Origin: Buttiauxella gaviniae ATCC 51604
GTDB taxonomy: Bacteria > Pseudomonadota > Gammaproteobacteria > Enterobacterales > Enterobacteriaceae
Assembly: GCF_001654835.1 (NCBI RefSeq)
Contig: NZ_LXEP01000032.1
Span: 1 to 64,000 of the forward strand
Direction: 5' to 3'
Length of the DNA stretch: 64,000 nucleotides
Under the pieces are notes generated by a model. That model worked only from the letters and a program-made list of their open reading frames with translations, was not told where the DNA came from and ran no database searches. Every line of letters starts with the position of its first letter. The first letter of the stretch is position 1. A program made the position numbers and the translations under genes. Shown in pieces: positions 44,483 through 62,765 of the stretch.

Positions 44483-44522
44483 AATGTTTATCCTTAAATA
44501 CTTTTTTGTCGTTTAATGCCCA

Positions 44523-44936: not shown

Positions 44937-44945
44937 GACAGCCTC

Positions 44946-45335: not shown

Positions 45336-45339
45336 CGCC

Positions 45340-47241: not shown

Positions 47242-47289
47242 TACACTAGCTATTTGGGCTTAAATTATCAATCCGATGGGAGTTTCACC

Positions 47290-47673
47290 ATGAACTTTAT
47301 TAAAGTAGCAGCAATCGCAGCAGCATTGGTGGTTTCGGGAAGTGCACTGGCTGGTCAAATCTATCAGGGCGGACATGGTAGTAGTGGTGGCTATGGTAAT
47401 TATGGCGATACCAATCAAGGTCTAACTGTTACTCAACTTGGTAATTTTAACGGCGCTAACGTTAACCAAAGTTCAAAATCCAGCAGCCTTGATCTACTGC
47501 AAAGCGGTAATAATAACCAGGCTAATCTTGTTCAGGCAAGTACTCGTGCCGACCTGGATGTTAAACAATTCGGCAACTTTAACGGTGCCAATGTGACACA
47601 AGCTACAACTGGCGCTTCGGCAGCTGTAACTCAGTCTGGCTGGGGTAATCAGGCCAATGTCTATCAGCACTAA
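47290..47673 (+). CDS. csgA: Curlin major subunit CsgA (four-repeat form)
   Basis: 127-residue secreted amyloid subunit with signal peptide ending SGSALA/GQIYQG. A Gly-rich N-terminal segment is followed by only four curlin repeats: LTVTQLGNFNGANVNQ, LDLLQSGNNNQANLVQ, LDVKQFGNFNGANVTQ and AAVTQSGWGNQANVYQ. E. coli CsgA has 151 residues and five repeats. By alignment of repeat features, the first (R1) is missing here. Repeats 1/3 and 2/4 resemble each other. ATG 47290 aligns with the family start; the reading from 47254 adds non-signal residues. Confidence 0.93.
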   Translation: MNFIKVAAIAAALVVSGSALAGQIYQGGHGSSGGYGNYGDTNQGLTVTQLGNFNGANVNQSSKSSSLDLLQSGNNNQANLVQASTRADLDVKQFGNFNGANVTQATTGASAAVTQSGWGNQANVYQH

Positions 47674-47694
47674 TTGCTAAACTAGACAAAAAAA

Positions 47695-47725
47695 GAACAG
47701 GGCCTTGATGCCCTGTTCTTTTTAT
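47695..47725 (+). terminator. Terminator between csgA and csgC
   Basis: Stem GAACAGGG/CCCTGTTC followed by TTTTTATT, 21 bases after csgA. It would reduce csgC relative to csgBA. Confidence 0.88.
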
Positions 47726-47736
47726 TGGGGGAAACC

Positions 47737-48066
47737 ATGCACACATTAGTTTTATTAGTCGCGCTCAGTAATCAGCTTGCTTTCGATACTCAGCAGCAGG
47801 GAGATATTTACACCATCGTGCCTGTCGCTACGCTCACTCAAGACTGCCAGTGTTCCTACAAATTTACCGCGCTACGTTCCGGCTCAGGAGGGCAAAGCAA
47901 CAGCAGCCAAAGCGGGAACATTTTTATAAAAGCGAATGAACCTGCCCGGCTTACACGGATGAGTATGAATATTTCTCCTGGAGATAATGTGACCATTATG
48001 GTGACCGTGTCGGATGGAAAAGATATTCATCTGGAAAAAGAGTGGGCTCCGCCGGGCAATGTTTAA
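47737..48066 (+). CDS. csgC: Curli assembly inhibitor CsgC
   Basis: 109-residue periplasmic immunoglobulin-like protein that prevents premature CsgA amyloid formation. The CxC pair (CQC near residue 36) and the LSMNISPGDNVTIMVTVSDG-like strand region (MSMNISPGDNVTI) are conserved. ATG 47737 aligns with E. coli CsgC; the reading from 47725 starts at TTG in the terminator tail. Confidence 0.93.
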   Translation: MHTLVLLVALSNQLAFDTQQQGDIYTIVPVATLTQDCQCSYKFTALRSGSGGQSNSSQSGNIFIKANEPARLTRMSMNISPGDNVTIMVTVSDGKDIHLEKEWAPPGNV

Positions 48067-48178: not shown

Positions 48179-48490
48179 GTGAAAACAGTAAGCTTGAGAC
48201 GTTCATTTCTTTTGCCTGTTTTTGTTCTTGCTTTCCCTTTACTTAATGCTCATGCCAGTGGTGGTGTGATTCATTTTCAGGGGGCAATAGTAGAAGAAGG
48301 TTGTCGTTTATCGAATCAGGAACATTCTGTTAAATTTTCCTGTACCCAAAACGGGGAGCCAGTTGTTCAGACCATCGCACTTAATAAGCTGAATAATTAT
48401 ACGGCTGGTGGCGATGCTCCGTTTTCTACCAAAATGCGCTACATTGACGCGCAACATCAACTGGCAGTTCTGGAAATCACATACCGTTAG
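48179..48490 (+). CDS. ymdA: Curli-locus protein YmdA
   Basis: 103-residue exported protein starting at GTG 48179 (GAGGAG nine bases upstream). Signal peptide FLLPVFVLAFPLLNAHA. The mature part starts SGGVIHFQGAIVEEGC, a pattern like the first strands of pilin subunits, with two Cys able to form a disulfide. Downstream of csgC as in E. coli. Function unknown; a role in curli or surface assembly is only suggested by position. Confidence 0.88.
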   Translation: MKTVSLRRSFLLPVFVLAFPLLNAHASGGVIHFQGAIVEEGCRLSNQEHSVKFSCTQNGEPVVQTIALNKLNNYTAGGDAPFSTKMRYIDAQHQLAVLEITYR

Positions 48491-48496
48491 AATCCG

Positions 48497-48517
48497 CGGC
48501 CTGTGATTAGCAGGCCG
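48497..48517 (+). terminator. Stem-loop after ymdA
   Basis: CGGCCTG TGATTAG CAGGCCG directly after the ymdA stop, with a weak T tail. It separates the curli operon from the aryl-polyene cluster. Confidence 0.5.
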
Positions 48518-48706
48518 TTGGAATCGATGTATGAATATTTATTTCCCAGTCATTTTGATACTATTCCCCGCCGTTGATGAATTCATTGCGCGCAAAATAT
48601 AAGCGGCTTAAGAAAAATCCCGTAAAATTAAGACTTATTTTATAGTCGGCATAAATTCGAAGATATATATCTGACGGGACGTCGCAGATGATTGATGGTA
48701 CAGAGC

Positions 48707-49429
48707 ATGAAGTTAGCGTTTAACGTTGTCGACTGGCAGGCCAGTGCACCAGGTTTATCTGAACATGATGACTGGCAGGCATGGGGAAAAACCGCAGCTA
48801 TTATTGATGTTTCATCCCCGCTTGCCAAAAGTCGCCATCTACCTATGATGACCGCGCGCCGTCTGGCATCAGGTAGCCGTCTTGCTGTTGACTGTGCCCT
48901 TGCTATTTTGTCCCGACAAAATGTTGATGCGCTGGTCTTTTCCAGCCGCCATGGTGAGCTGGAGCGAAATTTTCGGATTTTAACTGCATTAGCGTGCGAA
49001 GAGAGTCTCTCACCAACTGATTTTGCGATGTCAGTACACAATTCAGCGGTAGGGAATACCACGATTGCGGCCCAACAAGCACTGGTTTCGTCCTCTGTTT
49101 CCGCAGGCTTTGACAGTTTTGCGCAGGCATTAATCGAAGTGGCATCGCTGCATCACTGTGGGTATCAACGCGTGATGTTGGTGGATTTCGATGGGCTGAT
49201 TCCTGATTTTTATCACTCTCATCTTCCAGGTGAGACGGTCAGCATGCCATTTGCGGTGGCACTGTTGCTGGAAGCTGGATCGCAGATCCAGTGTGAAACA
49301 ACACCGAGCCAAACCCCTGGTGCGCAAGGTTTACCGCAGGGGCTGGCATTTTTGCACGGCTGGCTCAGTGGCGAGCAGACATTCACTCTTCTTGGTGAAC
49401 GGCTGTGCTGGCGTTGGAGTCGTCATTAA
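48707..49429 (+). CDS. apeC: KS-like chain-length-factor subunit, ApeC type
   Basis: Ketosynthase-like protein of 240 residues, about half the usual KS length, of the N-terminal KS-fold type found at the head of aryl-polyene clusters. At the place of the catalytic Cys it reads SVHNSAVGNT, so it cannot itself condense. ApeC proteins form a heterodimer with the KS ApeO (here at 58567). ATG 48707 is chosen because MKLAFNVVDWQ begins family sequence; ATG 48695 and TTG 48692 also lie in frame. First gene of a tightly packed rightward operon of fifteen genes. A 216-base gap upstream must hold its promoter. Confidence 0.82.
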   Translation: MKLAFNVVDWQASAPGLSEHDDWQAWGKTAAIIDVSSPLAKSRHLPMMTARRLASGSRLAVDCALAILSRQNVDALVFSSRHGELERNFRILTALACEESLSPTDFAMSVHNSAVGNTTIAAQQALVSSSVSAGFDSFAQALIEVASLHHCGYQRVMLVDFDGLIPDFYHSHLPGETVSMPFAVALLLEAGSQIQCETTPSQTPGAQGLPQGLAFLHGWLSGEQTFTLLGERLCWRWSRH

Positions 49430-50199
49430 TGTGGGGGCGCATAGAGTGGTGCTGGCGCGTGCTGATGACCGGTTGGTTGTTCATTCTATTTGGTAGCGGT
49501 GGCCTGGTATTGTCACTGGTATGGTTTAACTTGTTGTTACTGTTTGTTCGCGATAATGGCAAACGCCGTCAGATTGCTCGCCGTAGCATCTCCGCCAGTT
49601 TCCGGCTATTTTTACGCATCGGACGCGGGCTGGGCGTGTTTGATTATCGCTTCGAAAATTGCGCGCAATTAGCAAACGACCATGGATGCTTGATAGTCGC
49701 TAACCACCCGACTCTGCTCGATTATGTGTTTATTGCTTCTCAGGCACCGCATATTGGTTGCCTGGTGAAAGCAAGCCTGGTGAACAATCCCTGTTTTCGC
49801 GGCGTGATTAAAGCCGCGGACTATCTGGTTAATAGTCAGGGCGAAACATTACTTCCTGAAAGCCAGAAACGCATAGCGGCAGGGGAGGCGATTCTGATTT
49901 TCCCGGAAGGGACGCGTACCCGTCCGGGTGAACCGCTGGTTATCCAGCGAGGTGCTGCGAATATTGCTGTGCGTTGTAGATGTGAATTGCGTTTGGTGCA
50001 TATTCACTGTGACCAGCGTTATCTGGACAAACACAGCCGCTGGTACCAGATACCTCAGCGCAAGCCGATGATTACTGTGAGTGCCAAACAGCGGATCGAC
50101 AGCCAAAGCTTTATGGCAAATCAAGACGATGCCCCCACGATTGCGGCGCGCCGTCTTAGCCAATATTTAAGTCAGGAATTGGTTCCTGACCCTTTTTAA
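49429..50199 (+). CDS. PlsC-like acyltransferase of the APE cluster
   Basis: 256-residue 1-acylglycerol-3-phosphate acyltransferase-like protein. One N-terminal membrane segment (TGWLFILFGSGGLVLSLVWF), then HX4D motif NHPTLLDY near residue 96 and the phosphate-binding EGTRTRPGEP near 155. It probably attaches an acyl chain to the lipid anchor of the polyene. The ATG shares one base with the apeC stop (TAATG). Confidence 0.88.
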   Translation: MWGRIEWCWRVLMTGWLFILFGSGGLVLSLVWFNLLLLFVRDNGKRRQIARRSISASFRLFLRIGRGLGVFDYRFENCAQLANDHGCLIVANHPTLLDYVFIASQAPHIGCLVKASLVNNPCFRGVIKAADYLVNSQGETLLPESQKRIAAGEAILIFPEGTRTRPGEPLVIQRGAANIAVRCRCELRLVHIHCDQRYLDKHSRWYQIPQRKPMITVSAKQRIDSQSFMANQDDAPTIAARRLSQYLSQELVPDPF

Positions 50200-50237
50200 A
50201 AGTCTACTCAGATAGACTCTAAGACTCGGATGGTGAT

Positions 50238-50510
50238 ATGCAATCTCTAGAGACCGATATTAAACAACTCATTATCGACACCCTGAATCTCGAAGAGATA
50301 AGTGTCGATGAGATTGAAAGTGAGGCTGCGTTATTTGGTAACGACGGCCTTGGCCTTGATTCCATCGATGCTCTGGAATTGGGTCTGGCGGTTAAAAAAC
50401 GTTATGGTGTGGTGTTATCCGCAGAAAACGAAACGATGCGTGAACATTTTTACTCGGTCGCGAATCTGGCCGCATTTATTAATAGTCAAAACCCTGCGCA
50501 CAGCGCCTGA
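50238..50510 (+). CDS. apeE: Acyl carrier protein 1 of the APE cluster
   Basis: 90-residue acidic ACP. The phosphopantetheine attachment Ser42 is in GLGLDSIDALEL. It carries the growing polyene or starter unit as thioester. The second ACP follows after 19 bases; two distinct ACPs are usual in APE clusters. Requires activation by a phosphopantetheinyl transferase, for which the cluster carries its own gene at 62151. Assignment of E versus F rests on order. Confidence 0.88.
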   Translation: MQSLETDIKQLIIDTLNLEEISVDEIESEAALFGNDGLGLDSIDALELGLAVKKRYGVVLSAENETMREHFYSVANLAAFINSQNPAHSA

Positions 50511-50529
50511 TTGAAACCACGAGTACGCT

Positions 50530-50778
50530 ATGAATAAAGAAGATATTTATCAGGAAGTCACCGGGTTACTGGTTAAGTTATTTGAACTCTCTCCTGAGCA
50601 AATCACCCCGCAATCTCGTCTTTACGAAGATTTGGATCTCGATAGTATCGATGCGGTAGATATGGTTGTGCATCTGCAAAAACGCACCGGTAAAAAAATC
50701 AAACCGGAAGATTTCAAAACGGTTCGTACCGTACAGGATGTCGTAGACGCAGTTGAGCGTCTGCATAGCGGGTCTTAA
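50530..50778 (+). CDS. apeF: Acyl carrier protein 2 of the APE cluster
   Basis: 82-residue ACP, attachment Ser39 in LDLDSIDAVDMV. Its helix II (DMVVHLQKRTGKKI) is more basic than in ACP 1, which suggests different enzyme partners. Assignment of E versus F rests on order. Confidence 0.88.
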   Translation: MNKEDIYQEVTGLLVKLFELSPEQITPQSRLYEDLDLDSIDAVDMVVHLQKRTGKKIKPEDFKTVRTVQDVVDAVERLHSGS

Positions 50779-50781
50779 AGC

Positions 50782-51351
50782 GTGCTGGCAAAACGTGCGC
50801 TAAGTATTGTCGGAGGGCTAGCCGTAATAGGTTGGCCCTTTGCCGTCTGGTTAGCCCTTTCGTATCCAAAATTACATATTTTGCTGCCTATTCTGGCGTT
50901 GTGCTTTGTACTGCGCTTGTGCGCATTGCGTGGCAAAACGGGTGCTTTGAGTCGTGCGTTCAAAGGGCTGGCCATTGCGGGGGCGGTGTTATCTATTGCC
51001 AGTATTTGGATGCGTGAAGCACAGCTGTTGTTGTGGTATCCGGTGGTGGTCAATGTGGTGATGCTGGCACTATTTGGTGCCTCACTGTGGAGTAGCCAGT
51101 CTTTGATTGAACGCCTGGCTCGTTGGCGTGAAGGGGATCTACCGGCTGCAGGTGTGCGATATACCCGTCGCGTGACGCAAGTGTGGTGCATTTTCTTTAT
51201 CCTGAATGGCAGCATGGCACTATTCACCTGCCTTGCGGGTAACATTCACTGGTGGACATTGTGGAATGGAATGGCGAGTTACCTGCTGATGGGGGCGTTA
51301 TTTGCCGGTGAATGGTTGGTGAGGCAGCGGGTGAAACGTCGCTATGAATAA
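50782..51351 (+). CDS. APE cluster inner-membrane protein (COG4648-like)
   Basis: 189-residue protein with about five membrane helices, start GTG 50782 three bases after the ACP stop. A conserved central basic patch (RLARWREGDLPAAGVRYTRRVTQ) lies between membrane segments. Homologues occur in aryl-polyene clusters; molecular role unknown. Its 3' end overlaps the ligase gene by eight bases. Confidence 0.8.
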   Translation: MLAKRALSIVGGLAVIGWPFAVWLALSYPKLHILLPILALCFVLRLCALRGKTGALSRAFKGLAIAGAVLSIASIWMREAQLLLWYPVVVNVVMLALFGASLWSSQSLIERLARWREGDLPAAGVRYTRRVTQVWCIFFILNGSMALFTCLAGNIHWWTLWNGMASYLLMGALFAGEWLVRQRVKRRYE

Positions 51352-52660
51352 TCCTTTACCTCTGAAGCTGTGGCTAAGCGGTCGCCATCCGCAACATATT
51401 GTGGCGTTTGAAGGGCCGCAGCTTCGGACGCAGGCCGATTTAATCAATGATGTTCAGCGTATCTATGGCTGGCTAAAAACGCAGCCTGGCGATCGCTGGG
51501 CGCTTTGCCTTGATAACAGCTACGCCTTTATTACCGCGCTTTTGGCGACACTGCATGCGGGTAAAACACCTGTGATCCCTGGACATTGCCGGGAAGCACA
51601 GCTTCGCGAACAGCAAATGCATTTTTGCGGCGTCATTAGCGATGTGCCACTCAACCTCAGCTGTCCGGTGATAAACCCGCAAACCCTGGCGTATACGGCA
51701 GTCCAACCCTTTGAACCGGTTCCTGTCGATGCTGGTGTGGTGCTATTTACCTCGGGGTCTACTGGTGAGCCTGCGCAGATTTTTAAAACGCTACAAGCGT
51801 TGGATGAAGAGATCGCCTGGCTTGCGGCATTGTGGGGCGAACAGATCCGCGATTGTCGCGTGGTGGGCTCGGTGTCACACCAGCATCTCTATGGTTTTAC
51901 TTTCCGTGTGATGCTGCCAATGGCGCTTGGTCTTGCCGGTGATGCTGCAATGATTCACTTCCCTGAGCAACTGGTGGCGCATTCGACCCATCCTTTATTG
52001 TTTATCAGCAGTCCGGCATTTTTAAAACGCCTCGATGCGAACCTCACGGCTCCGACTTTTAAAAGCGTGATTTCTGCCGCCGGGAAACTCGATGACGATA
52101 CCGCGAAAAATGCACGAGCGTGGCTTAAAACACCGGTATCAGAAATTTATGGCACCACCGAAACGGGTGTGCTGGCGTGGCGGCAACATTCGCAAATCTC
52201 GCCCGAATGGCAGCCCTTCCCGGAAGTGCGTTTTACCCCGCACGGTGATGGCTGGCAGGTTGAGTCAGCATTGATTCATCACCGATGCGTGCAGTTAGAC
52301 GATATTCTCGAATTTGGCCCGCAGGGGAGTTTTCGCTTATTAGGTCGCCGCGATCGCATTGTAAAAATCGAAGAAAAGCGCATTTCACTGAGTGAAATTG
52401 AGCGCCGATTACTGGCGCTCCCTGGTATTGAGGATGCCGCTGTCATTCCCATTACGCGTGGTAACCGAATTGCGCTGGGCGCGGTCGTGGTTGCTTGTGA
52501 ACAAACGGCTAATAAACAACTCTGGCGTGAAGCACTCCGCGCCTGGCTTGAGCCAATAGCCATTCCGCGTTATTGGCGCATCGTCGAGCTTATTCCACAC
52601 AATAGCCAAGGCAAGCGTTCGTGGGTGCAATTACAGGAGTTATTTGATGAAACCCGTTGA
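51344..52660 (+). CDS. apeH: Acyl-ACP ligase (AMP-binding) of the APE cluster
   Basis: 438-residue adenylating enzyme. The P-loop LFTSGSTGEP lies at residues 134-143, YGTTETG near 265 and the hinge GRRDRIVKIEEKRI near 343. By analogy with ApeH it activates an aryl acid starter (4-hydroxybenzoate or cinnamate type) and loads it on an ACP. The protein is shorter than typical acyl-CoA ligases, as is usual for the family. No starter-producing lyase accompanies it. Confidence 0.86.
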   Translation: MNNPLPLKLWLSGRHPQHIVAFEGPQLRTQADLINDVQRIYGWLKTQPGDRWALCLDNSYAFITALLATLHAGKTPVIPGHCREAQLREQQMHFCGVISDVPLNLSCPVINPQTLAYTAVQPFEPVPVDAGVVLFTSGSTGEPAQIFKTLQALDEEIAWLAALWGEQIRDCRVVGSVSHQHLYGFTFRVMLPMALGLAGDAAMIHFPEQLVAHSTHPLLFISSPAFLKRLDANLTAPTFKSVISAAGKLDDDTAKNARAWLKTPVSEIYGTTETGVLAWRQHSQISPEWQPFPEVRFTPHGDGWQVESALIHHRCVQLDDILEFGPQGSFRLLGRRDRIVKIEEKRISLSEIERRLLALPGIEDAAVIPITRGNRIALGAVVVACEQTANKQLWREALRAWLEPIAIPRYWRIVELIPHNSQGKRSWVQLQELFDETR

Positions 52661-52997
52661 GTTACAGCGCTCGCAGCCCGAAGCAGGAAAACTGTGCCTA
52701 CGTTTAGCTGTTCCGGCGACGGTAGGCTGGTTCGCAGGCCATTTTCCCACTCAACCATTATTACCTGGCGTGGCGCAGCTCGATTGGGTCATGGCTTATG
52801 GAGTCACACTTGCGCCGGGAATGCGCTTCTGTTCAATTGATAGCGTTAAATTCCAACGCCCGATTGTGCCGGGAAGCGAACTTGAGCTGAATCTGCAATG
52901 GGATGCTACGCGCTGTGTGTTGAGTTTCACTTATACCCTGTTAAGCGAAGAGGGTGGTGTTGCTGCCAGCAGCGGGAAAATTAATCTATGTCCATAA
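52647..52997 (+). CDS. apeI: Hot-dog dehydratase subunit ApeI
   Basis: 116-residue FabZ/FabA-like 3-hydroxyacyl-ACP dehydratase. The catalytic His is in AGHFPTQPLLPGVAQLDW. It works together with the second dehydratase ApeP (59732), with which ApeI is known to form a heterodimer. ATG 52647 has AGGAG upstream; the frame at 52644 begins with TTG. Overlaps both neighbours. Confidence 0.87.
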   Translation: MKPVELQRSQPEAGKLCLRLAVPATVGWFAGHFPTQPLLPGVAQLDWVMAYGVTLAPGMRFCSIDSVKFQRPIVPGSELELNLQWDATRCVLSFTYTLLSEEGGVAASSGKINLCP

Positions 52998-54682
52998 CAG
53001 CCTCGGCTTTTCACCCTTGTGTGGTGATCCCATGTTATAACCACGGCGCGACAATGGCGGTGGTGCTGAAACGTCTGCAACCTTTTGCACTGCCGGTGAT
53101 TATTGTTGATGACGGTAGTGATGCTGCAACCAAGCAGGAACTGGCGCAGTTAACTGGCGTCACCCTTATCCATTTGGAAAACAATCGGGGAAAAGGGGAG
53201 GCAGTCATTACCGGCCTTAAAGCGGCGTCACAGGCAGGGTTTAGCCATGCTATTCAACTTGATGCTGACGGGCAGCACTGCATTGAAGATGTCCCTCGTT
53301 TTTTAGATGAAGCGCGCAAGCATCCTGATTGCCTGATTTCTGGAATGCCGGAATACGATGATTCTGTTCCAAAATCGCGTCTTTACGGGCGCTATGTCAC
53401 GCACGTTTGGGTGTGGATTGAAACTCTGTCACTGTCTTTAAAAGACAGCATGTGTGGTTTCCGTGTTTATCCGTTGGCGGCAACGCTTGCGGTTATTGCG
53501 AAACATTCCCCAGGTAAACGCATGGATTTCGATACCGAAATTATGGTGCGTTTATATTGGGCTGGGACCAACAGCCATTTTTTGCGCACGCGAGTGATTT
53601 ATCCAGTAGATGGCCTGTCGCACTTTGACGCACTTCGCGACAATCTGCGCATCTCGTGGATGCATACGCGACTCTTCTTCGGCATGTTACCGCGCATTCC
53701 GGCATTACTCTCGCGTCGTCGAAAGAGCACTCATTGGGCGCAAGTGCCAGAACGTAAGGGGCTGGCGGGAATGCGCTTAATGCTGAATATCTACCAACGT
53801 CTGGGGCGGCGTGCATTTAACGCATTGCTCTATCCGGTGGTGGCGTGGATGTGGTTAACCGGCGGCACGCAGCGAAAGGCATCACAGCAGTGGCTAGCTC
53901 AGGTTCGTCAACAGGCACAATGCCTGGGCGTTACACTGCCAGCCGGGTTAAACAGCTATCGCCACTTCTTACGCTTTGGCGATGCAATGCTAAACAAAAT
54001 TGCTGCCTGGCGCGGCGATATTCTCTGGGGGCGTGATATCGAGTTTGCCCCCGGCAGCCGTGAAGTTTTACAACCGCGGGCCGGGCAGGGGAAGTTAATC
54101 CTCGCCGCACATCTGGGTGATATCGAAGCCAGCCGCGCACTGGCTCAGGTTGAGGCCGGGCTTGTGATTAATGCGCTCGTCTTCACCGATAACGCTCAAC
54201 GCTTTCGTCAGATTATTGAAGAAATTGCTCCACAGGCCGGTGTGAATCTGCTGCCGGTTAGCCATATTGGCCCGGAAACTGCCATGCTTCTACAAGAAAA
54301 ACTCGATGCCGGAGAGTGGGTGGCGATCGTCGGTGATCGGGTTGCTGTTAATACGCAACGTGGCGGCGAACGGCGCGTATGCTGGAGCCAGTTTATGGGC
54401 AACCTGGCCCCTTTCCCGCAAGGGCCGTTTATTCTTGCCGCCGCATTACGATGCCCGGTCATTTTGATGATGGTTTTGCGTGAACAGGGCAAACTGCGCA
54501 TTCATGCTGAGAACTTTGCCGATCCTTTGGTGTTGCCACGTGCAACTCGGCAACAAGCACTACAAGAACATATTGATAATTACGCGCGCCGTCTGGAGTG
54601 TTATGCACTGCGTTCGCCGCTCGATTGGTTTAATTTTTATGATTTCTGGCAATTACCTCCAGAAAAGGAGTCCGGATGTTAA
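52988..54682 (+). CDS. Glycosyltransferase 2 / LpxL-like acyltransferase fusion
   Basis: 564-residue bifunctional protein. Residues 1-235 form a GT-A family 2 glycosyltransferase (VIPCYNHG, IVDDGSD, QLDADGQH, a DxD-type metal site). Residues about 260-560 form a lipid A lauroyl-acyltransferase-like domain (AAHLGDIEASRAL HX4E motif, VGDRVAVN). It would add a sugar and an acyl chain to the lipid anchor of the polyene. Such fusions are typical of APE clusters. In several described clusters an ammonia lyase gene follows; here the thioesterase gene does. Confidence 0.87.
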   Translation: MSITASAFHPCVVIPCYNHGATMAVVLKRLQPFALPVIIVDDGSDAATKQELAQLTGVTLIHLENNRGKGEAVITGLKAASQAGFSHAIQLDADGQHCIEDVPRFLDEARKHPDCLISGMPEYDDSVPKSRLYGRYVTHVWVWIETLSLSLKDSMCGFRVYPLAATLAVIAKHSPGKRMDFDTEIMVRLYWAGTNSHFLRTRVIYPVDGLSHFDALRDNLRISWMHTRLFFGMLPRIPALLSRRRKSTHWAQVPERKGLAGMRLMLNIYQRLGRRAFNALLYPVVAWMWLTGGTQRKASQQWLAQVRQQAQCLGVTLPAGLNSYRHFLRFGDAMLNKIAAWRGDILWGRDIEFAPGSREVLQPRAGQGKLILAAHLGDIEASRALAQVEAGLVINALVFTDNAQRFRQIIEEIAPQAGVNLLPVSHIGPETAMLLQEKLDAGEWVAIVGDRVAVNTQRGGERRVCWSQFMGNLAPFPQGPFILAAALRCPVILMMVLREQGKLRIHAENFADPLVLPRATRQQALQEHIDNYARRLECYALRSPLDWFNFYDFWQLPPEKESGC

Positions 54683-55101
54683 ATGACCCACGTTTTACTG
54701 TGGAGGTCAGCATCAAAGTCCCATTCCATGATGTCGATGCGATGGGAGTTGTGTGGCATGGCAACTATTTCCGCTACTTTGAGGTGGCGCGCGAAGCATT
54801 GCTCAACCAATTTGATTATGGCTATCGTGCCATGAGTGAGTCTGGCTTTGTCTGGCCGGTTGTCGACACTCGAGTTAAATACCGTGATACGGTGAAATTT
54901 GAACAACAGATTCTGGTGCGCGCAACGGTACTCGAGTATGAAAACCGCCTAAAAATCGGCTATGAAATTGTTGATGCCCAAACTGGCAAACGCGCTACTT
55001 CGGGTTACACCATCCAGGTTGCCGTTGAGGCAACAAGCGGAGAACTTTGTTTCGTCTCCCCTCAGATACTTTTTGAACGCATGGGCTTGAGTCATGAATA
55101 A
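54676..55101 (+). CDS. Hot-dog acyl-ACP/CoA thioesterase of the APE cluster
   Basis: 141-residue 4HBT-type thioesterase. The active-site motif HDVDAMGVVWHGNYFRYFE is at residues 18-36. It may release or proofread acyl intermediates. Its ends overlap the fusion gene by seven bases and the LolA-like gene by eight. Confidence 0.88.
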   Translation: MLNDPRFTVEVSIKVPFHDVDAMGVVWHGNYFRYFEVAREALLNQFDYGYRAMSESGFVWPVVDTRVKYRDTVKFEQQILVRATVLEYENRLKIGYEIVDAQTGKRATSGYTIQVAVEATSGELCFVSPQILFERMGLSHE

Positions 55102-55699
55102 GATTATTTTAATGGCCTTGCTGTGTATCAGCTTTATGGCGAACGCAATTACCCTCGATGACGTGCAACGTAGCTTTGCATCGCAGCCGGTGGTGCGGGC
55201 TAAATTCCAGCAAGACCGTCAAATTAGTGGGATGGCGCAACCGCTGCATTCCAGCGGTGAAGTGTTGATCGCTAAAAGCAAAGGTTTGTGGTGGCAGCAA
55301 CAACATCCATTCCCGATGACGCTGGTCCTTGATGATAGCCACATGGTGCAGGTCATGGGCAGTCAGGCCCCGCAAATCATTACCGCAGACAGCAACCCGC
55401 AAATGTTCCAGTTCAATCATTTGCTACGCGCTCTATTCCAGGCCGACCGTAAAGTGCTTGATGAAAACTTCTCCAGCGCTTTTACCGACCAGGGCAATGG
55501 CAAATGGCAACTGGTCTTAACGCCGACTACGACGCCGCTCGATAAGCTGTTTAGTACGATTACCCTGGAAGGCGATAAATACCTTAATCGCATTGCGCTG
55601 AATGATTTGCAGGGCGACTTTACGGAAATCACCTTTAGCGACCACCGACTAAATCCACGAAAATTGACTCATGAAGAGCAGCAGCGCTTCGCTTTCTAA
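55094..55699 (+). CDS. LolA-like periplasmic carrier of the APE cluster
   Basis: 201-residue protein with signal peptide (ILMALLCISFMANA/ITLDD) and LolA fold pattern (VRAKFQQDRQISGMAQPL, GLWWQQQHPFPM). It probably chaperones the lipid-linked polyene across the periplasm from the MMPL exporter to the outer membrane. Confidence 0.87.
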   Translation: MNKIILMALLCISFMANAITLDDVQRSFASQPVVRAKFQQDRQISGMAQPLHSSGEVLIAKSKGLWWQQQHPFPMTLVLDDSHMVQVMGSQAPQIITADSNPQMFQFNHLLRALFQADRKVLDENFSSAFTDQGNGKWQLVLTPTTTPLDKLFSTITLEGDKYLNRIALNDLQGDFTEITFSDHRLNPRKLTHEEQQRFAF

Positions 55700-57989
55700 T
55701 ATGCATCGTCGTCTGGCATGGGGTTGGCTTGCGATAGTCACTGTGCTGGTGGTGTTGCTCGCAATGTTGTTGCCAAAGGCTCGGCTCGACAGCAGTGTGC
55801 TGTCGCTGCTGCCTGCCAGCAGCCTCGGTAAAGTTCCGCCACAAATCGAGAACGGTTTTTTGCAACGTCTCGATAGACAAATGATGTGGATGGTCAGCCC
55901 CGGCAATCAACCCGATCCAGCTGCCGCGCAATGGTGGCAAACGCAACTGCAACAGCAGCCATTCCTTGCGGGTGTGCAGGGGCCGATGGATGCAAAGGGT
56001 CAGCAGGAGTGGGGGAAATTCTACTTCGAGCATCGCAACGGCCTGGTTGATAGCCAAACTCGCGATCGTTTACAAAATGGTGGCGAAGCCCAGGCTCAGT
56101 GGGTGTTGTCGCAACTTTACTCGGCGTTTTCTGGCGTCAGTGGTAAAGAGCTGACAAACGATCCGTTGATGCTGGTGCGTGGGTCACAACTGGCGCTGCA
56201 ACAAACGGCCAGTCAGATGCGATTGATGAACGGCTGGCTGGTGGCACGTGATAAACAAGGGCGTTACTGGTATTTGCTACACGGTGAACTAAAAGGTTCA
56301 TCGTTTGATATGCAGCAGGGGCGCGAAGCGGTTGAGCAACTGCAAGCCTTGAAGCAAAACCTGAAACAGCACTTCCCGCAGGCTGAAGTGATGTCGCGTG
56401 GCACACTTTTCTACAGTGATTACGCAAGTCAGCAGGCAAAGCATGATGTTTCAACGCTTGGCCTGGCAACGGTGATTGGCGTGTTGCTACTGGTGCTTGC
56501 GGTGTTTCGCTCGGTACGGCCTCTACTGTTGTGTGCCACATCGGTTGCTATCGGAGCACTGGCTGGCACCGCTATCACACTACTTTGCTTTGGTGAACTG
56601 CACCTGATGACGCTTGTTATGAGCATGAGCATCGTTGGTGTTTCGGCCGATTACACGCTCTATTATCTCACTGAACGCATGGTGCATGGCCGAGAAAACT
56701 CGCCCATCACGAGTTTACGCAAAGTGCTTCCTGCTTTACTGCTGGCGCTGGCGACAACCGCTATTGCTTACCTGATTATGATCCTCGCGCCGTTCCCCGG
56801 CATTCGCCAACTCGCCGTCTTTGCCGCCAGTGGTTTAATTGCCTCCTGCCTGACGGTCGTGTGCTGGTACCCGTTTGCGGTGCGCGGCTTGCCGGTTAAG
56901 GCTGTGCCTTGTAGCCGGTTACTTACTGCCTGGCTTGATGCATGGCAGAACAAAAAAGCAGTGCGCGTTGGCGTGCCGCTCGCCTTGTTGGTGGTTAGCC
57001 TCACAGGAATTGCCTCCTTAAAAATCAATGACGATATCGCCAGTTTCCAGGCATTGCCGCAGGATCTGGTACGTGAAGAGCAGGCCATTACCGCTTTAAC
57101 CGGGCAGGGTATGGACCAGAAATGGTTCGTGGTTTATGGCGATACCGCCGAGCAAACGCTGCAACGCCTGGAAAAACTGGCTCCTGAACTTGCAGAGGCT
57201 AAAAAGCAAAAAGCTATCGAGAGCTATCGCCTGATTCCTTTAGCCTCTCTTGAGCAGCAACAGGCGGATTTGCTTCTGCTGCGCGAAGCCGCCCCTATAT
57301 TGCAAAAACGTCTTGCCGAAAGCGGCATTCCGGTGACTGCACCTAATTTACAGCAGATGGCAGTGACTCCGGATCTTTGGCAAAAAAGCGTGATTAGTAG
57401 CGGCTGGCGCTTGTTGTGGGTATCGCTGCCTGACGGTAAAAGCGGCGCGCTAGTGCCGGTAAATGGCGTTCACAATAGTGAATTACTTGCCAACATTGCA
57501 GCAAAGTTGCCTGGCGTAAGTTGGGTCGACAGAAAAGTGATGTTTAATGAATTATTCAGCCACTTCCGTAGTTTGTTGACTATTTTACTGGCTGCGGCAG
57601 TCGTGGCGATTGCCATCAGCTATGTGCTGCGACTCGGTGTAAAACGCGGGTTATTAAGTGTTGTACCTTCGCTGTTATCGCTGGGTTGTGGGCTTGCAGC
57701 ACTTGCCTTCAGTGGACATACATTAAACCTGTTCTCACTATTGGCGCTGGTGTTAGTCCTCGGGATTGGCATCAATTACACGCTGTTCTTTAGTAACCCA
57801 CGCGGCACCCCGTTGACGTCGCTTCTGGCAATAAGTGTGGCATTGCTGACCACACTCTTCACATTAGGCATGTTGGTCTTTAGCCAGACACAAGCCATCG
57901 CAAGCTTTGGCATTGTGCTCAGTTGCGGCATCTTCTGTGCATTCCTGACAGCCCCCTTAGCCCTACCTACTCAGGGAAAGAGAGAATAA
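55671..57989 (+). CDS. MMPL/RND-type exporter of the APE cluster
   Basis: 772-residue inner-membrane exporter with two repeats, each a first helix, a large periplasmic loop and a five-helix bundle (VIGVLLLVLAVFRSVRPLL region near residue 270, ALVLVLGIGINYTLFF near 690). MMPL proteins move lipids out of the inner membrane. ATG 55671 overlaps the LolA-like gene by 29 bases; ATG 55701, just after that stop, is an alternative that loses ten residues. Neither has a good ribosome-binding site. Confidence 0.88.
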   Translation: MKSSSASLSNMHRRLAWGWLAIVTVLVVLLAMLLPKARLDSSVLSLLPASSLGKVPPQIENGFLQRLDRQMMWMVSPGNQPDPAAAQWWQTQLQQQPFLAGVQGPMDAKGQQEWGKFYFEHRNGLVDSQTRDRLQNGGEAQAQWVLSQLYSAFSGVSGKELTNDPLMLVRGSQLALQQTASQMRLMNGWLVARDKQGRYWYLLHGELKGSSFDMQQGREAVEQLQALKQNLKQHFPQAEVMSRGTLFYSDYASQQAKHDVSTLGLATVIGVLLLVLAVFRSVRPLLLCATSVAIGALAGTAITLLCFGELHLMTLVMSMSIVGVSADYTLYYLTERMVHGRENSPITSLRKVLPALLLALATTAIAYLIMILAPFPGIRQLAVFAASGLIASCLTVVCWYPFAVRGLPVKAVPCSRLLTAWLDAWQNKKAVRVGVPLALLVVSLTGIASLKINDDIASFQALPQDLVREEQAITALTGQGMDQKWFVVYGDTAEQTLQRLEKLAPELAEAKKQKAIESYRLIPLASLEQQQADLLLLREAAPILQKRLAESGIPVTAPNLQQMAVTPDLWQKSVISSGWRLLWVSLPDGKSGALVPVNGVHNSELLANIAAKLPGVSWVDRKVMFNELFSHFRSLLTILLAAAVVAIAISYVLRLGVKRGLLSVVPSLLSLGCGLAALAFSGHTLNLFSLLALVLVLGIGINYTLFFSNPRGTPLTSLLAISVALLTTLFTLGMLVFSQTQAIASFGIVLSCGIFCAFLTAPLALPTQGKRE

Positions 57990-58564
57990 TGAAAATACTA
58001 CCTACACTGGCATTGTTGCTTGGCTCCTTATTATTGAGTGCGTGCAGCACAACAAAACCAGATAGCTCAAGGCCGCAGGCCTGGTTAAAAGCCGGCACTT
58101 TAGTGACGTTGCCCCCGCCTGGGATTTCGCCGTCAATTACCCAACAACAATTACTGACTGCGCAAGTCAAAGGCAAAACCCAATCATTGATGGTGTTGCT
58201 CAATGCCGACCAGCAGAAAATCATGCTGGCTGGTTTGTCGCCGTTAGGGATTCGTTTATTCCGGCTGACTTATGACAGTCAGGGCGTGAAAACCGAGCAG
58301 TCATTGACGCTGCCAGAATTGCCTCCAGCAAGTCAGGTTCTTGCCGATATTATGTTGAGCTACTGGCCGATAAGCGCCTGGCAGCCGCAGTTACCTAAAG
58401 GCTGGACATTAAAGGATATCGATTCCCGCCGCGAACTGCGAGATGACCAGGGGGAGTTGATTGAGACAATCCATTATCTGATGCGTAACGGCAGTCGTCA
58501 GCCGGTGAGTGTGCACCACCATCGTTTCGGTTATGTCATCAGCATTCATCATCTGGACAGCTAA
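57989..58564 (+). CDS. DUF3261-like lipoprotein of the APE cluster
   Basis: 191-residue lipoprotein with signal and lipobox LLLSAC (Cys at 18). The ATG shares one base with the exporter stop (TAATG), and AGAGAG lies upstream. No catalytic motif. It probably acts as an outer-membrane acceptor partner of the LolA-like carrier, comparable to LolB. Confidence 0.83.
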   Translation: MKILPTLALLLGSLLLSACSTTKPDSSRPQAWLKAGTLVTLPPPGISPSITQQQLLTAQVKGKTQSLMVLLNADQQKIMLAGLSPLGIRLFRLTYDSQGVKTEQSLTLPELPPASQVLADIMLSYWPISAWQPQLPKGWTLKDIDSRRELRDDQGELIETIHYLMRNGSRQPVSVHHHRFGYVISIHHLDS

Positions 58565-58566
58565 TT

Positions 58567-59739
58567 ATGATTACTCTATCTGCTGCCGGAATGGTCAACG
58601 CGTTAGGTAACAACCTTGACGAAATCGCAGCAAATTTGCAGGCCAACACGGCACCTGGTATGGGGCCAGATACCGATGACTGGTTGCAGCAGGGCGAATG
58701 TTGGGTCGGGCGTGTTTGTGGAGAATTACCAGAAATAGCGCCAGAAATGGCGCAGTACAACAGCCGAAATAACCGTCTGTTATTGGCTGCTCTGGCGCAA
58801 ATTCGCCCGCAGGTGGATGACGCCATTGCACGATACGGAAACGAGCGCGTGGCAGTCGTGTTGGGGACCAGTACTTCAGGGCTTGATGAAGGTGACCGTA
58901 TGGTCAGCGGCAGCCACGAAGGTTCTCCACCCGCTTCTTATTATTACGGCCAGCAAGAGCTTGGCGATCCCTCACGTTTTCTGAGCGACTATTTGCAACT
59001 GTTTGGTCCGGCGTTGACGATTTCAACCGCCTGTTCTTCCAGCGCGCGAGCAATGATTACCGGTAAAAGGCTAATTGAGTCGGGAATGGTGGATGCTGCG
59101 ATTGTGGGTGGCGCAGATACCCTCAGCCGCATGCCTATCAACGGTTTCAATAGCCTGGAGTCATTAAGTAACGTGCGCTGCAAGCCGTTTAGCGCCGAGC
59201 GCAACGGCATTACCATTGGTGAAGCCGGTGCATTGATATTACTGACCAAAGAGCCGGGTAAAGTCTGTTTACTGGGAGTGGGTGAGTCGTCTGATGCCTG
59301 GCATATGTCAGCCCCACATCCGGAAGGTCTTGGGGCTATTCGCGCAATTGAAATGGCGCTGCGTGAGGCCAGAATCGGCGCGCATGATATTGGCTATATT
59401 AATATGCACGGTACTGCCACGCGTCTGAATGACGAAATCGAGGCGAAAGTGGTAAATCAACTTTTTGGCGAAAGCGTGCCTGCCAGTTCCACTAAGCACC
59501 TTACCGGGCATACGCTAGGCGCTGCGGGTGCTTGTGAAGCGGTGCTCTGTTATATGCTGCTAGCACGCGACTTACTGCTGCCTGCACAAGATTTCACTGA
59601 CGCGCATCAAGACATGAGCCTTGCGGCCTGTGGTCTACTCACCGCGCCAAAACCATTCCTCAAACCGATAATGCTATCGAACTCATTTGCTTTTGGCGGC
59701 AATAATGCTTGCCTGATTTTTGGAGTTTCTCATGACTGA
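58567..59739 (+). CDS. apeO: Ketosynthase ApeO
   Basis: 390-residue beta-ketoacyl-ACP synthase with a complete triad: Cys156 (ISTACSSSAR), His281 (NMHGTATRLND) and His315 (STKHLTGHTLGAAG), with Lys310. It should be the condensing partner of the Cys-less ApeC-like protein at 48707, forming a KS/chain-length-factor pair that elongates the polyene. It overlaps apeP by eight bases. Confidence 0.9.
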   Translation: MITLSAAGMVNALGNNLDEIAANLQANTAPGMGPDTDDWLQQGECWVGRVCGELPEIAPEMAQYNSRNNRLLLAALAQIRPQVDDAIARYGNERVAVVLGTSTSGLDEGDRMVSGSHEGSPPASYYYGQQELGDPSRFLSDYLQLFGPALTISTACSSSARAMITGKRLIESGMVDAAIVGGADTLSRMPINGFNSLESLSNVRCKPFSAERNGITIGEAGALILLTKEPGKVCLLGVGESSDAWHMSAPHPEGLGAIRAIEMALREARIGAHDIGYINMHGTATRLNDEIEAKVVNQLFGESVPASSTKHLTGHTLGAAGACEAVLCYMLLARDLLLPAQDFTDAHQDMSLAACGLLTAPKPFLKPIMLSNSFAFGGNNACLIFGVSHD

Positions 59740-60190
59740 TTTTCTTGCCCCACAACACTACCTGCCGCACGAAGCACCCATGTGCTTGCTTGAATCGGTA
59801 GTGGCGGTGGAACAAGAAAGTGCGCATTGTCGGGTCACGGTGAGAAACCCTGGTGTGCTTGCACCTTTTCTAGATGCCGAAGGCAATTTACCGGGCTGGT
59901 TTGCTATTGAATTGATTGCCCAGACGGTCGGCGTGTGGTCAGGCTGGCATGCGAAAAAAAACGGTGAAGAAGAAAGCCTGGTTGGAATGCTGCTGGGTGG
60001 GCGGGGAATACGCTGCCCGGCAGGCATTTTCCCACAAGGTACGCTACTGGAATGCCACGTCACGCTGCTGATGCGTGATGAGAAGATTGGTAGTTTTGAA
60101 GGACAAATTCTCGCGGACGGCAACGTACTGGCGAGCGGGCGAGTTAATACATATCAGCCTGATAATAATGAATTAAAACAATTATTTTGA
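59732..60190 (+). CDS. apeP: Hot-dog dehydratase subunit ApeP
   Basis: 152-residue FabA/FabZ-like dehydratase. His in YLPHEAPMCLLESV, and the Glu in AIELIAQTVGVWSGWH is at the second catalytic position. ATG 59732 with GGAG upstream overlaps apeO (ATGACTGA). It acts with ApeI to dehydrate each beta-hydroxyacyl intermediate, giving conjugated double bonds. Confidence 0.88.
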   Translation: MTDFLAPQHYLPHEAPMCLLESVVAVEQESAHCRVTVRNPGVLAPFLDAEGNLPGWFAIELIAQTVGVWSGWHAKKNGEEESLVGMLLGGRGIRCPAGIFPQGTLLECHVTLLMRDEKIGSFEGQILADGNVLASGRVNTYQPDNNELKQLF

Positions 60191-60202
60191 TGGGATAGCA
60201 AG

Positions 60203-60934
60203 ATGACACAGACGGTATTAGTAACCGGCGCTAGCAAGGGGATTGGCAAGGCGATTGCTCTGGGGCTTGCCGCCGATGGATTTGCGGTGGTGGTGCATTA
60301 CCATCGTGACGAAGCGGGCGCACTGGATACGCTTGAGCAAATTACGGCTCAGGGCGGAAAAGGGCGCGTGATGCAGTTTGATAGCTCAGACCGTAGCCAA
60401 TGCCGCAGTGTCCTTGAGGCTGATATCGAAACCCACGGTGCATATTGGGGGGTGGTCAATAATGCGGGTATGACTCGCGATGGCGCATTTCCTGCACTCA
60501 GTGATGATGATTGGGATGGTGTTATTCGTACCAATCTCGACAGCTTTTACAATGTGATACAGCCGTGCGTCATGCCGATGATTGGCCTGCGCAAAGGTGG
60601 GCGCATTATTACACTTTCTTCGGTTTCTGGCCTGATGGGCAACCGTGGTCAGGTGAACTATAGCGCGGCAAAAGCGGGCATTATCGGCGCAACTAAAGCG
60701 CTGGCGATAGAACTGGCAAAGCGCAAAATCACCGTAAACTGTATTGCTCCGGGTTTGATTGATACCGGCATGATTGAGATGGAAGAGGCGGCGCTTACTG
60801 AAGCAATGCGTATGATTCCATTGCAACGTATGGGCCAACCCGAAGAAGTGGCGGGGCTTGCGCGTTACCTGATGTCACCTATTGCGGGCTACGTTACGCG
60901 CCAGGTTATCTCCATCAATGGAGGTATGCTGTGA
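60203..60934 (+). CDS. apeQ: Beta-ketoacyl-ACP reductase ApeQ
   Basis: FabG-like SDR of 243 residues. TGASKGIG at 8-15, catalytic Ser140, Tyr153 and Lys157 (SSVSG..NYSAAKAG), and C-terminal NGGML. It reduces the keto group in every elongation cycle. It overlaps apeR by four bases. Confidence 0.92.
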   Translation: MTQTVLVTGASKGIGKAIALGLAADGFAVVVHYHRDEAGALDTLEQITAQGGKGRVMQFDSSDRSQCRSVLEADIETHGAYWGVVNNAGMTRDGAFPALSDDDWDGVIRTNLDSFYNVIQPCVMPMIGLRKGGRIITLSSVSGLMGNRGQVNYSAAKAGIIGATKALAIELAKRKITVNCIAPGLIDTGMIEMEEAALTEAMRMIPLQRMGQPEEVAGLARYLMSPIAGYVTRQVISINGGML

Positions 60935-62157
60935 TTAAGCGTGTAGTAGTAACCGGAATGGGTGGCGTGACGGCATTTGGCACTAACTGGCAGGATGTAG
61001 CAGCGGGCTTGAAGTCTGGTAAAAACGCGGTCCGTCATATGCCAGAGTGGCAGGTTTACGATGGGCTGAACACCATGCTCGGTGCGCCGGTCGATAATTT
61101 TACTTTACCGGAGCACTACACGCGAAAGCGTATACGGGCGATGGGGCGCGTTTCGCTGCTGGCGACCAGGGCCACGGAACTTGCGCTAATTCAGGCGGGT
61201 TTGCTCGACGACCCTATTCTTACCAGTGGCGAAACTGGTATTGCCTACGGTTCTTCGACCGGAAGCACCGGGCCGGTGAGCGAGTTCGCTACCATGCTCA
61301 CTGAAAAACACACCCGTAATATTACCGGCACCACTTATGTGCAGATGATGCCACATACCGCGGCGGTCAATACCGGATTGTTTTTTGGCTTGCGTGGACG
61401 GGTGATCCCAACCTCCAGTGCTTGCACGTCAGGTAGTCAGGCGATTGGTTATGCCTGGGAAGCGATTCGCCATGGTTACCAGACAGTGATGGTTGCGGGG
61501 GGAGCAGAAGAGTTATGTCCTTCGGAAGCGGCGGTATTTGATACGCTTTTTGCCACCAGCCAGCGTAACGATCGGCCAAAGAGCACACCGTCCCCGTTTG
61601 ATAAACAACGAGATGGGCTAGTAATTGGTGAAGGTGCGGGGACATTGATCCTTGAAGATCTCGATCATGCCCTGGCACGTGGCGCGACAATCTATGCTGA
61701 AATTGTCGGCTTTCATACCAATTGTGATGCAGCACATATCACGCAGCCGCAGAAAGAAACCATGCAAATCTGTATCGAGCGCGGCTTGGTTTCCGCTGGG
61801 CTTGAGGCTCGCGACATTGGATACATTAACGCCCATGGCACCGCAACCGATCGTGGTGACATTGCGGAAAGTCACGCTACGGCGGCAATTTTTGGTGCCA
61901 ATACGCCTATATCTTCACTGAAAAGTTATTTGGGCCATACGCTCGGTGCATGTGGTGCGCTGGAAGCGTGGATGAGTATCGAGATGATGCGTGAAGGTTG
62001 GTTTGCCGAAACACTCAACTTGACTGAACCTGATGAGGCGTGCGGCGAGCTCGATTACATCATGGGTGGAGCGCGCAAAATCGACACTGAGTTTGTGCAG
62101 AGCAATAATTTCGCCTTTGGTGGAATTAACACGTCACTGGTGATGCGCCGTTGGTAG
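60931..62157 (+). CDS. apeR: Second ketosynthase ApeR
   Basis: 408-residue beta-ketoacyl-ACP synthase (FabF-like) with intact Cys165 (TSSACTSGSQA), His302 (INAHGTATDRGD) and His336 (SYLGHTLGACG). In described APE clusters ApeR is an additional KS outside the ApeO-ApeC pair, possibly acting early in chain building. It overlaps the phosphopantetheinyl transferase gene by seven bases. Confidence 0.9.
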   Translation: MIKRVVVTGMGGVTAFGTNWQDVAAGLKSGKNAVRHMPEWQVYDGLNTMLGAPVDNFTLPEHYTRKRIRAMGRVSLLATRATELALIQAGLLDDPILTSGETGIAYGSSTGSTGPVSEFATMLTEKHTRNITGTTYVQMMPHTAAVNTGLFFGLRGRVIPTSSACTSGSQAIGYAWEAIRHGYQTVMVAGGAEELCPSEAAVFDTLFATSQRNDRPKSTPSPFDKQRDGLVIGEGAGTLILEDLDHALARGATIYAEIVGFHTNCDAAHITQPQKETMQICIERGLVSAGLEARDIGYINAHGTATDRGDIAESHATAAIFGANTPISSLKSYLGHTLGACGALEAWMSIEMMREGWFAETLNLTEPDEACGELDYIMGGARKIDTEFVQSNNFAFGGINTSLVMRRW

Positions 62158-62765
62158 TCAACGGCTATCACCTGGCATTTGCCGATGCGGCGTGTTTAGC
62201 GGGTGATGTACTCGCTACACGCTGGATGTCACCTGAATTGCTGGAAGAGGCACCCGTGGGGTTGCGCCGCGCAGAATGGCTGGCTGCCAGAATTTTGCTG
62301 GCGATGCTGCTCAATGACGGCCCGTTACCGAAATTAGATCGGGGCGCTCACGGCAAACCGTTTCATCCGGCACTGCCTGCTTTTAATATCAGTAACACGG
62401 GTTCATCTGTTGCGGTGCTGGTGGGTGAAGGAGATGTGGGTTGCGATATTGAGTTCATTCGCCCGCGTGCGCGTTTCATGGCGATTGCCCGGCATAGTTT
62501 TGGTGCGCCACTTTGTGATTGGCTAGAATCGTTGCCTGAAGATGAAAAAATGGTGTCGTTCTGGCGCTTGTGGACGGCGCACGAGGCGGTGCTCAAGCAG
62601 CGTGGAGGAACGGTCTGGCAAATGAATCAGCTCAATTTACCGCTGGAGTCACTTTGCCCGCCAGACCGATATCTTCATCATGCTTGCGTCGAAAACCGGC
62701 TGATCGCGTGTTGCGGCGAGCAGCCGTTTCCCGATAGTTTTGCACCCGTAATGATTATTGTCTAA
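62151..62765 (+). CDS. Phosphopantetheinyl transferase of the APE cluster
   Basis: 204-residue Sfp/AcpT-like enzyme, start TTG 62151 inside the apeR end. Motifs: HGKPFHP and FNISNTGSSVAV (substrate loop), Asp99 in GCDIEFI (Mg2+), and WTAHEAVLKQRGG (Glu and Lys). It would convert both cluster ACPs to their holo form, making the pathway independent of housekeeping enzymes. Its end overlaps the convergent decarboxylase by eleven bases. The unusual start is the main uncertainty. Confidence 0.87.
   Translation: MVVNGYHLAFADAACLAGDVLATRWMSPELLEEAPVGLRRAEWLAARILLAMLLNDGPLPKLDRGAHGKPFHPALPAFNISNTGSSVAVLVGEGDVGCDIEFIRPRARFMAIARHSFGAPLCDWLESLPEDEKMVSFWRLWTAHEAVLKQRGGTVWQMNQLNLPLESLCPPDRYLHHACVENRLIACCGEQPFPDSFAPVMIIV

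What the first reader, a model, noticed from the sequence alone, without database searches (positions are those of the whole stretch)
48707..62765. Aryl-polyene cluster without an ammonia lyase or methyltransferase
The cluster has the full APE synthase (ApeC/O/R-type ketosynthases, two ACPs, ApeH ligase, ApeI/P dehydratases, ApeQ reductase), lipid-anchor enzymes, exporter proteins and its own phosphopantetheinyl transferase. Between the glycosyl/acyltransferase fusion and the thioesterase, and in the rest of the cluster, there is no aromatic amino-acid ammonia lyase and no SAM methyltransferase, both of which occur in some described APE clusters. The ligase must therefore use an aryl acid from general metabolism (for example 4-hydroxybenzoate from chorismate) or another starter, giving an unmethylated or otherwise different pigment.
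Basis: partly seen in the sequence, partly recalled or inferred. Interest (0 to 1): 0.75.

Follow-up and report, generated by a model that had tools for sequence, protein, structure and literature searches.

The report
Ordinary aryl-polyene cluster lacking its methyltransferase
This is a standard bacterial gene cluster for a yellow membrane pigment: the 'missing' lyase is normal in its relatives, the 'missing' methyltransferase is absent in many of them too, and its one unusual feature is a position beside the curli biofilm genes.

Summary
Observation confirmed. Window 48707-62765 holds an intact aryl-polyene (APE) cluster, apeC to apeR plus an AcpT-like PPTase, without lyase or methyltransferase. 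The genome (Buttiauxella, inferred) has one aromatic lyase, HutH, and no ApeB-type methyltransferase, but does encode UbiC, source of 4-hydroxybenzoate.

4-Hydroxybenzoate loading by ApeH is the published APE mechanism, and no lyase was seen in 134 of 134 family loci. Methyltransferase absence does not bear on the starter; it predicts an unmethylated head group. That absence is common: 60 of 131 APE-bearing genomes in the family sample lack an ApeB relative, and the state changes at least 17 times on the tree.

Less expected: in 12 of 12 Buttiauxella genomes and 5 of 5 sampled from a sister genus the cluster lies just downstream of the curli genes; and in the family apeB was never seen without apeA, while apeA without apeB is common. 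No product was measured. New member of a known kind.

The parts
43649..46035 (-). csgG, csgF, csgE, csgD (curli secretion genes and the biofilm regulator CsgD); neighbours, not part of APE synthesis
   Evidence: NCBIfam over cut-off for CsgG, CsgF, CsgE and CsgD
46786..48066 (+). csgB, csgA, csgC (curli subunits and chaperone)
   Evidence: NCBIfam: CsgB and CsgC over cut-off; CsgA hit below its cut-off (93 vs 160 bits)
48179..48490 (+). small secreted-looking ORF after csgC (YmdA-like by recall; labelled 'csgC' in my scripts)
   Evidence: no NCBIfam or Pfam hit; relatives at the same place in 10 of 11 other Buttiauxella loci
48493..48523 (+). conserved hairpin between the curli genes and apeC, a possible terminator without a clear T run (approximate ends)
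   Evidence: 10 sequences, 11 pairs, 6 with changes on both sides that keep the pair
48707..49429 (+). apeC, chain-length-factor-like half ketosynthase
   Evidence: Ketoacyl-synt_2 E=1e-60; 57.5% to E. coli ApeC
49405..50199 (+). apeD, lysophospholipid-type acyltransferase (start uncertain)
   Evidence: Pfam acyltransferase; NHPTLLD motif
50238..50510 (+). apeE, acyl carrier protein
   Evidence: PP-binding; 67% to E. coli ApeE
50530..50778 (+). apeF, acyl carrier protein
   Evidence: PP-binding; 75% to E. coli ApeF
50782..51351 (+). apeG, COG4648-type membrane protein
   Evidence: no Pfam/NCBIfam hit; 54% to E. coli ApeG
51344..52660 (+). apeH, acyl-ACP synthetase (aryl-acid ligase)
   Evidence: AMP-binding; 48% to E. 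coli ApeH
52644..52997 (+). apeI, dehydratase
   Evidence: ApeI-like E=6e-28
52988..54682 (+). apeJ, glycosyltransferase/acyltransferase fusion
   Evidence: GT2; HX4E; 67% to E. coli ApeJ
54676..55101 (+). apeK, thioesterase; abuts apeJ with no lyase gene between
   Evidence: 4HBT_2; 7-base overlap
55094..55699 (+). apeL, LolA-like chaperone
   Evidence: LolA
55671..57989 (+). apeM, MMPL/RND exporter
   Evidence: MMPL; 62% to E. coli ApeM
57923..58564 (+). apeN, DUF3261 lipoprotein (true start probably about 57989)
   Evidence: DUF3261 E=2e-39
58567..59739 (+). apeO, ketosynthase
   Evidence: ketoacyl-synt N and C; active-site Cys
59720..60190 (+). apeP, dehydratase
   Evidence: ApeP-like E=2e-43
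60203..60934 (+). apeQ, ketoreductase
   Evidence: SDR; 79% to E. coli ApeQ
60931..62157 (+). apeR, second ketosynthase
   Evidence: ketoacyl-synt; 83% to E. coli ApeR
62151..62765 (+). AcpT-like phosphopantetheinyl transferase
   Evidence: ACPS; NCBIfam AcpT 140.6 bits, below its cut-off of 174

Best explanation
It is an ordinary, apparently functional gammaproteobacterial APE cluster of the lyase-free type. UbiC makes 4-hydroxybenzoate from chorismate; ApeH loads it onto an ACP; ApeO-ApeC (with ApeR), ApeQ and ApeI/ApeP extend it with malonyl units to a conjugated polyene; ApeK, ApeD and ApeJ release it and attach it to a lipid; ApeG, ApeL, ApeM and ApeN carry it to the outer membrane; the PPTase activates the ACPs. 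Because apeB (and apeA) are absent, the aryl head group is most likely left unmethylated. Shown here: gene content, order, families, motifs, absence of the two genes and presence of ubiC. Inferred from relatives: every chemical step and the product.
For: Full apeC-R order and families. UbiC in the genome. Only lyase is HutH. No ApeB relative in this or 11 other same-genus genomes. Same organisation in all 11 relatives of the genus. Published 4-hydroxybenzoate loading by ApeH (PMC8253772 passages; PMC8041823 passages). ApeH residue 276 (first position after the ETG motif) is Val/Ile-like as in lyase-free clusters, whereas it is Gly in 43 of 43 lyase-bearing loci.
Against: No product, expression or enzyme data. 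Residue 276 is not independent evidence: it changes once on the tree, and 3 of 159 lyase-free loci (L142, L144, L147) carry Gly. In E. coli, deleting apeA or apeB leaves only immature APE acids and no final APE lipid (PMC8253772), so a cluster without both might make a different or incomplete lipid. An unrelated methyltransferase elsewhere in the genome could act; generic methyltransferases were not tested.
Confidence: 0.72

Rival explanations
1. The head group is methylated after all, by a methyltransferase of another family encoded elsewhere in the genome.
For: Another type of methyltransferase gene occurs within one order-level APE cluster (L063), so non-ApeB enzymes can serve. Every genome encodes many methyltransferases (general knowledge).
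Against: No ApeB/FlxJ relative in the genome; no methyltransferase in the cluster; none recruited next to the cluster in the genus.
Confidence: 0.12
2. ApeH uses a different aryl acid from general metabolism or the environment, such as 4-coumarate, 3-hydroxybenzoate or a plant phenolic.
For: ApeH is among the least conserved proteins of the cluster (48% to E. coli), and its best NCBIfam hit is a 4-coumarate ligase, far below that model's cut-off (107 vs 335 bits).
Against: Its pocket-region residues group with lyase-free clusters and not with lyase-bearing ones, though this follows the tree. The genome has UbiC and no tyrosine or phenylalanine ammonia-lyase was found.
Confidence: 0.12
3. The cluster is silent or decaying, and the loss of apeA and apeB is a step in that decay.
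For: Broken apeB copies exist in relatives (4 of 134 loci). No promoter-like site above chance was found just upstream.
Against: All 17 genes are open, with catalytic motifs, and the cluster is kept in 12 of 12 Buttiauxella genomes.
Confidence: 0.06

Closest known systems
E. coli CFT073 APE cluster (apeA-apeR, c1204-c1186)
   Same: apeC to apeR in the same order, 47-83% protein identity, no lyase
   Different: CFT073 has apeA (lipoprotein) and apeB (methyltransferase) upstream and no PPTase of its own; here apeA and apeB are missing, an AcpT-like PPTase is the last gene, and the location differs
APE clusters of Citrobacter, Enterobacter, Lelliottia and Atlantibacter ending in an AcpT-like PPTase
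   Same: same core and a terminal PPTase
   Different: most of these have apeA and apeB; Lelliottia strain 51 (L078) and Pseudocitrobacter (L079) lack both, like the window
Pantoea APE clusters
   Same: no methyltransferase in 5 of 5 named loci (L069, L070, L072, L086, L124)
   Different: apeA retained, no PPTase seen, not next to curli genes
Vibrio/Shewanella/Burkholderia-type APE clusters
   Same: same synthase, anchor and export genes
   Different: an aromatic amino-acid lyase between apeJ and apeK and Gly at ApeH position 276

Membership tests
Aryl-polyene (APE) biosynthetic cluster | KS-chain-length-factor pair ApeO-ApeC and a second KS, ApeR | tested here: met
   Pfam hits and E. coli orthologues
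Aryl-polyene (APE) biosynthetic cluster | two ACPs and an acyl-ACP synthetase ApeH | tested here: met
Aryl-polyene (APE) biosynthetic cluster | ApeI and ApeP dehydratases and ApeQ ketoreductase | tested here: met
Aryl-polyene (APE) biosynthetic cluster | lipid-attachment and export genes apeD, J, K, L, M, N, G | tested here: met
Aryl-polyene (APE) biosynthetic cluster | product is an aryl polyene carboxylate on an outer-membrane lipid | not testable with these tools
   needs LC-MS
E. coli-type APE subgroup (methylated head group) | apeB methyltransferase | tested here: not met
E. coli-type APE subgroup (methylated head group) | apeA lipoprotein | tested here: not met
   no match beside the cluster nor in the genome at E<=10 (that search had no positive control)
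Lyase-bearing APE subgroup | aromatic lyase gene between apeJ and apeK | tested here: not met
   apeJ and apeK overlap; only HutH in the genome

The most novel reading that the evidence does not exclude
In Buttiauxella and its sister genus the APE cluster moved once to a site directly behind the curli operon and shed apeA and apeB, giving an unmethylated APE lipid that is deployed together with curli in the same biofilm programme. More generally, apeA works downstream of, or only on, the ApeB-methylated product, so it is dispensable only after apeB is gone; this would explain why apeB was never seen without apeA (0 of 69 visible family loci) while apeA without apeB is common (24).
Probability: 0.2. 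Interest if true: 0.5.

Novelty: new member of a known kind. Interest (0 to 1): 0.3.

Why it matters
Little for the pathway as such: it is a lyase-free APE cluster of a known type. As a natural experiment it is useful. E. coli mutants suggest apeA and apeB are needed to finish the APE lipid, yet nearly half of the APE-bearing genomes sampled in the family lack apeB while keeping the anchor and export genes. Either those lineages finish the lipid without methylation or they make something else; both can be tested by mass spectrometry. The fixed position beside curli offers a simple test of whether APE and curli are deployed together.

Tried and rejected
Rejected: the single PF00221 hit as a tyrosine ammonia-lyase (it passes the HutH cut-offs). 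Rejected: L059 as an ApeB relative (CMAS). Tried: residues that track methyltransferase loss among 4513 alignment columns of apeC-apeR (5991 residue tests); of the 25 strongest, none held up in independent pairs (10 pairs on supported branches), so the remaining enzymes show no clear adaptation. Tried: ApeH residue 276 against lyase presence; a strong correlation, but one change on the tree. Tried: lyases elsewhere in genomes whose Gly276 clusters lack an in-cluster lyase; inconclusive because HutH-like hits confound it. Tried: apeA and apeB loss as linked traits; same direction in about 4 of 10 independent pairs and never opposite, not significant. Tried: solved structures close to ApeH; only distant NRPS and DltA-type adenylating enzymes. 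Promoter and terminator scan upstream of apeC: not above chance.

Limits: ApeB and lyase counts rest on sequence similarity; methyltransferases of other families could be missed, above all outside Enterobacteriaceae, where several clusters have unidentified ORFs beside apeC. The tree is FastTree with several long branches, and the direction of change (loss or gain) is not inferred. Of 134 family rows in the tree, 10 had too little sequence upstream of apeC to judge apeA. L037 and L049 were left out of the tree for lack of apeR; G054 (49% complete) was not fetched.
Full report
WHAT IS THERE. Between the curli genes (csgGFED on the minus strand, csgBAC on the plus strand, 43649-48066) and an Orn/Lys/Arg-type decarboxylase gene on the minus strand (62755-63951) lie 17 tightly packed plus-strand genes: apeC, D, E, F, G, H, I, J, K, L, M, N, O, P, Q, R and an AcpT-like phosphopantetheinyl transferase. 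Each of the 16 ape proteins has its E. coli CFT073 counterpart, in the same order, at 47-83% identity. Apart from ApeG, which has no Pfam hit, every protein falls in an expected family; none is a lyase or methyltransferase. Active-site patterns are present in ApeO, ApeR, both ACPs, ApeD, ApeJ, ApeH and ApeQ.

WHOSE GENOME. The Buttiauxella brennerae ATCC 51605 contig found by name (L068, 143,678 bases) has the length of the contig in held genome G007, and the two loci are identical in the tree. G007 is in the window's genus, so the genus is Buttiauxella (inference).

THE LYASE. The genome has one PF00221 protein and it passes both histidine ammonia-lyase cut-offs. Lack of a lyase in the cluster is normal for this family: none in 134 of 134 family loci in the tree set, nor in 25 of 25 named Enterobacterales loci.

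THE STARTER. UbiC, which makes 4-hydroxybenzoate, is encoded. Johnston et al. 2021 (PMC8253772; abstract, passages and section 9 seen) state that the E. coli pathway is predicted to start with 4-hydroxybenzoate activated by ApeH, that Xenorhabdus ApeH does this in vitro, and that UbiC supplies the acid. An Acinetobacter in vitro assay also used 4-hydroxybenzoate (PMC8041823, passages). ApeH position 276 (first residue after ETG) is Gly in 43 of 43 lyase-bearing loci and another residue in 156 of 159 lyase-free loci, the window (Val) included; the exceptions are L142, L144 and L147. By recall, this position lines the aryl pocket of plant 4-coumarate ligases. It changes only once on the tree, so it fits the reading but does not prove it.

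THE METHYLTRANSFERASE. E. coli ApeB finds nothing at E<=0.001 in the window's genome or in 11 of 11 other same-genus genomes. The best own hit at a lax limit is a cyclopropane synthase (E=0.015), and the FlxJ-family model gives nothing below E=0.08. In a sample of 392 genomes of the family, 131 have a strong ApeJ match (E<=1e-90) and 71 a strong ApeB match (E<=1e-30), all 71 within the 131, leaving 60 APE-bearing genomes without ApeB (my count from the listings). On a FastTree tree of ApeJ+M+O+R (163 rows) presence or absence of the gene changes at least 17 times, 15 on the 124 family rows whose upstream side is visible. Four loci carry broken copies. Two Lelliottia loci differ: CCUG 25894 (L075) has apeA and apeB, strain 51 (L078) has neither. 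Johnston et al. already say that initiation and head-group tailoring differ by genus. The state of this cluster is therefore a frequent variant, and the product is predicted to be unmethylated.

APEA AND APEB. Among the 124 visible family loci: 65 have both genes intact, 4 have apeA with a broken apeB, 24 have apeA only, 31 have neither, and none has apeB only. In E. [quoted passage not shown] That fits ApeA acting on or after the methylated product, but in independent pairs the link is not significant (about 4 of 10 in the same direction, 0 opposite), and ApeA is small and divergent, so misses are possible. No residue in the remaining proteins clearly tracks methyltransferase loss.

THE CURLI NEIGHBOURHOOD. 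In the window, in 11 of 11 other Buttiauxella loci and in 5 of 5 sampled genomes of a sister genus (group g81) the cluster follows csgBA directly. In the other 118 tree rows of the family no csg gene was recognised in the stretch fetched (most stretches show about 5 kb upstream of apeC, some much less). The two genera form one supported group, so a single relocation is the simple reading. A conserved hairpin with compensatory changes follows the last small ORF of the curli side, which argues for a transcript end there and against simple read-through. APE expression increased biofilm in E. coli, but mutant data there suggest the effect is not directly due to APE synthesis (section 9), and in CFT073 APE and curli genes responded differently to temperature (PMC12890032, passages). 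Joint control with curli is therefore only a hypothesis. Searches for 'Buttiauxella' with 'aryl polyene' (1 unrelated paper listed) and 'aryl polyene' with 'curli' (6 listed; passages of two read) showed no report of this linkage in the open library; most subscription papers are not in it, and the original APE papers (Cimermancic 2014, Grammbitter 2019) were not held.

VERDICT. Real, correctly read as to content, ordinary in kind. The useful residue is the natural variation in apeA and apeB and the fixed curli linkage.

Noticed in passing
window 43649-48707 and L035-L045, L148-L152: The APE cluster sits directly behind the curli operon in 12 Buttiauxella genomes and 5 of a sister genus, with a conserved hairpin between.
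   Followed up: partly
L048, L080, L212, L224, L239: apeB is split or cut short beside an otherwise complete APE cluster (L048 and L080 look like the same genome); an interrupted copy also lies at L050.
   Followed up: partly
L075 and L078: Two loci titled Lelliottia nimipressuralis differ: one has apeA and apeB, the other neither.
   Followed up: no
L063:5526-6401: An APE cluster of an order-level relative carries a methyltransferase of another type between apeC and apeD.
   Followed up: no
L106-L112, L115, L119, L123, L126, L127 (Shewanella and Kangiella): Between apeM and apeN lies an extra ORF of about 416-453 aa (in L123 it matches an FAD-oxidoreductase of L063); possibly another head-group tailoring enzyme.
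   Followed up: no
ApeH position 276 in L142, L144, L147: Paraburkholderia and Thalassospira clusters without an in-cluster lyase still carry the Gly typical of lyase-bearing clusters; their lyase may be encoded elsewhere.
   Followed up: partly
L180, L182-L184, L187-L191, L193, L196, L197: In many draft genomes without apeB the contig ends within about 1.4 kb upstream of apeC, as if a repeat lay there.
   Followed up: no
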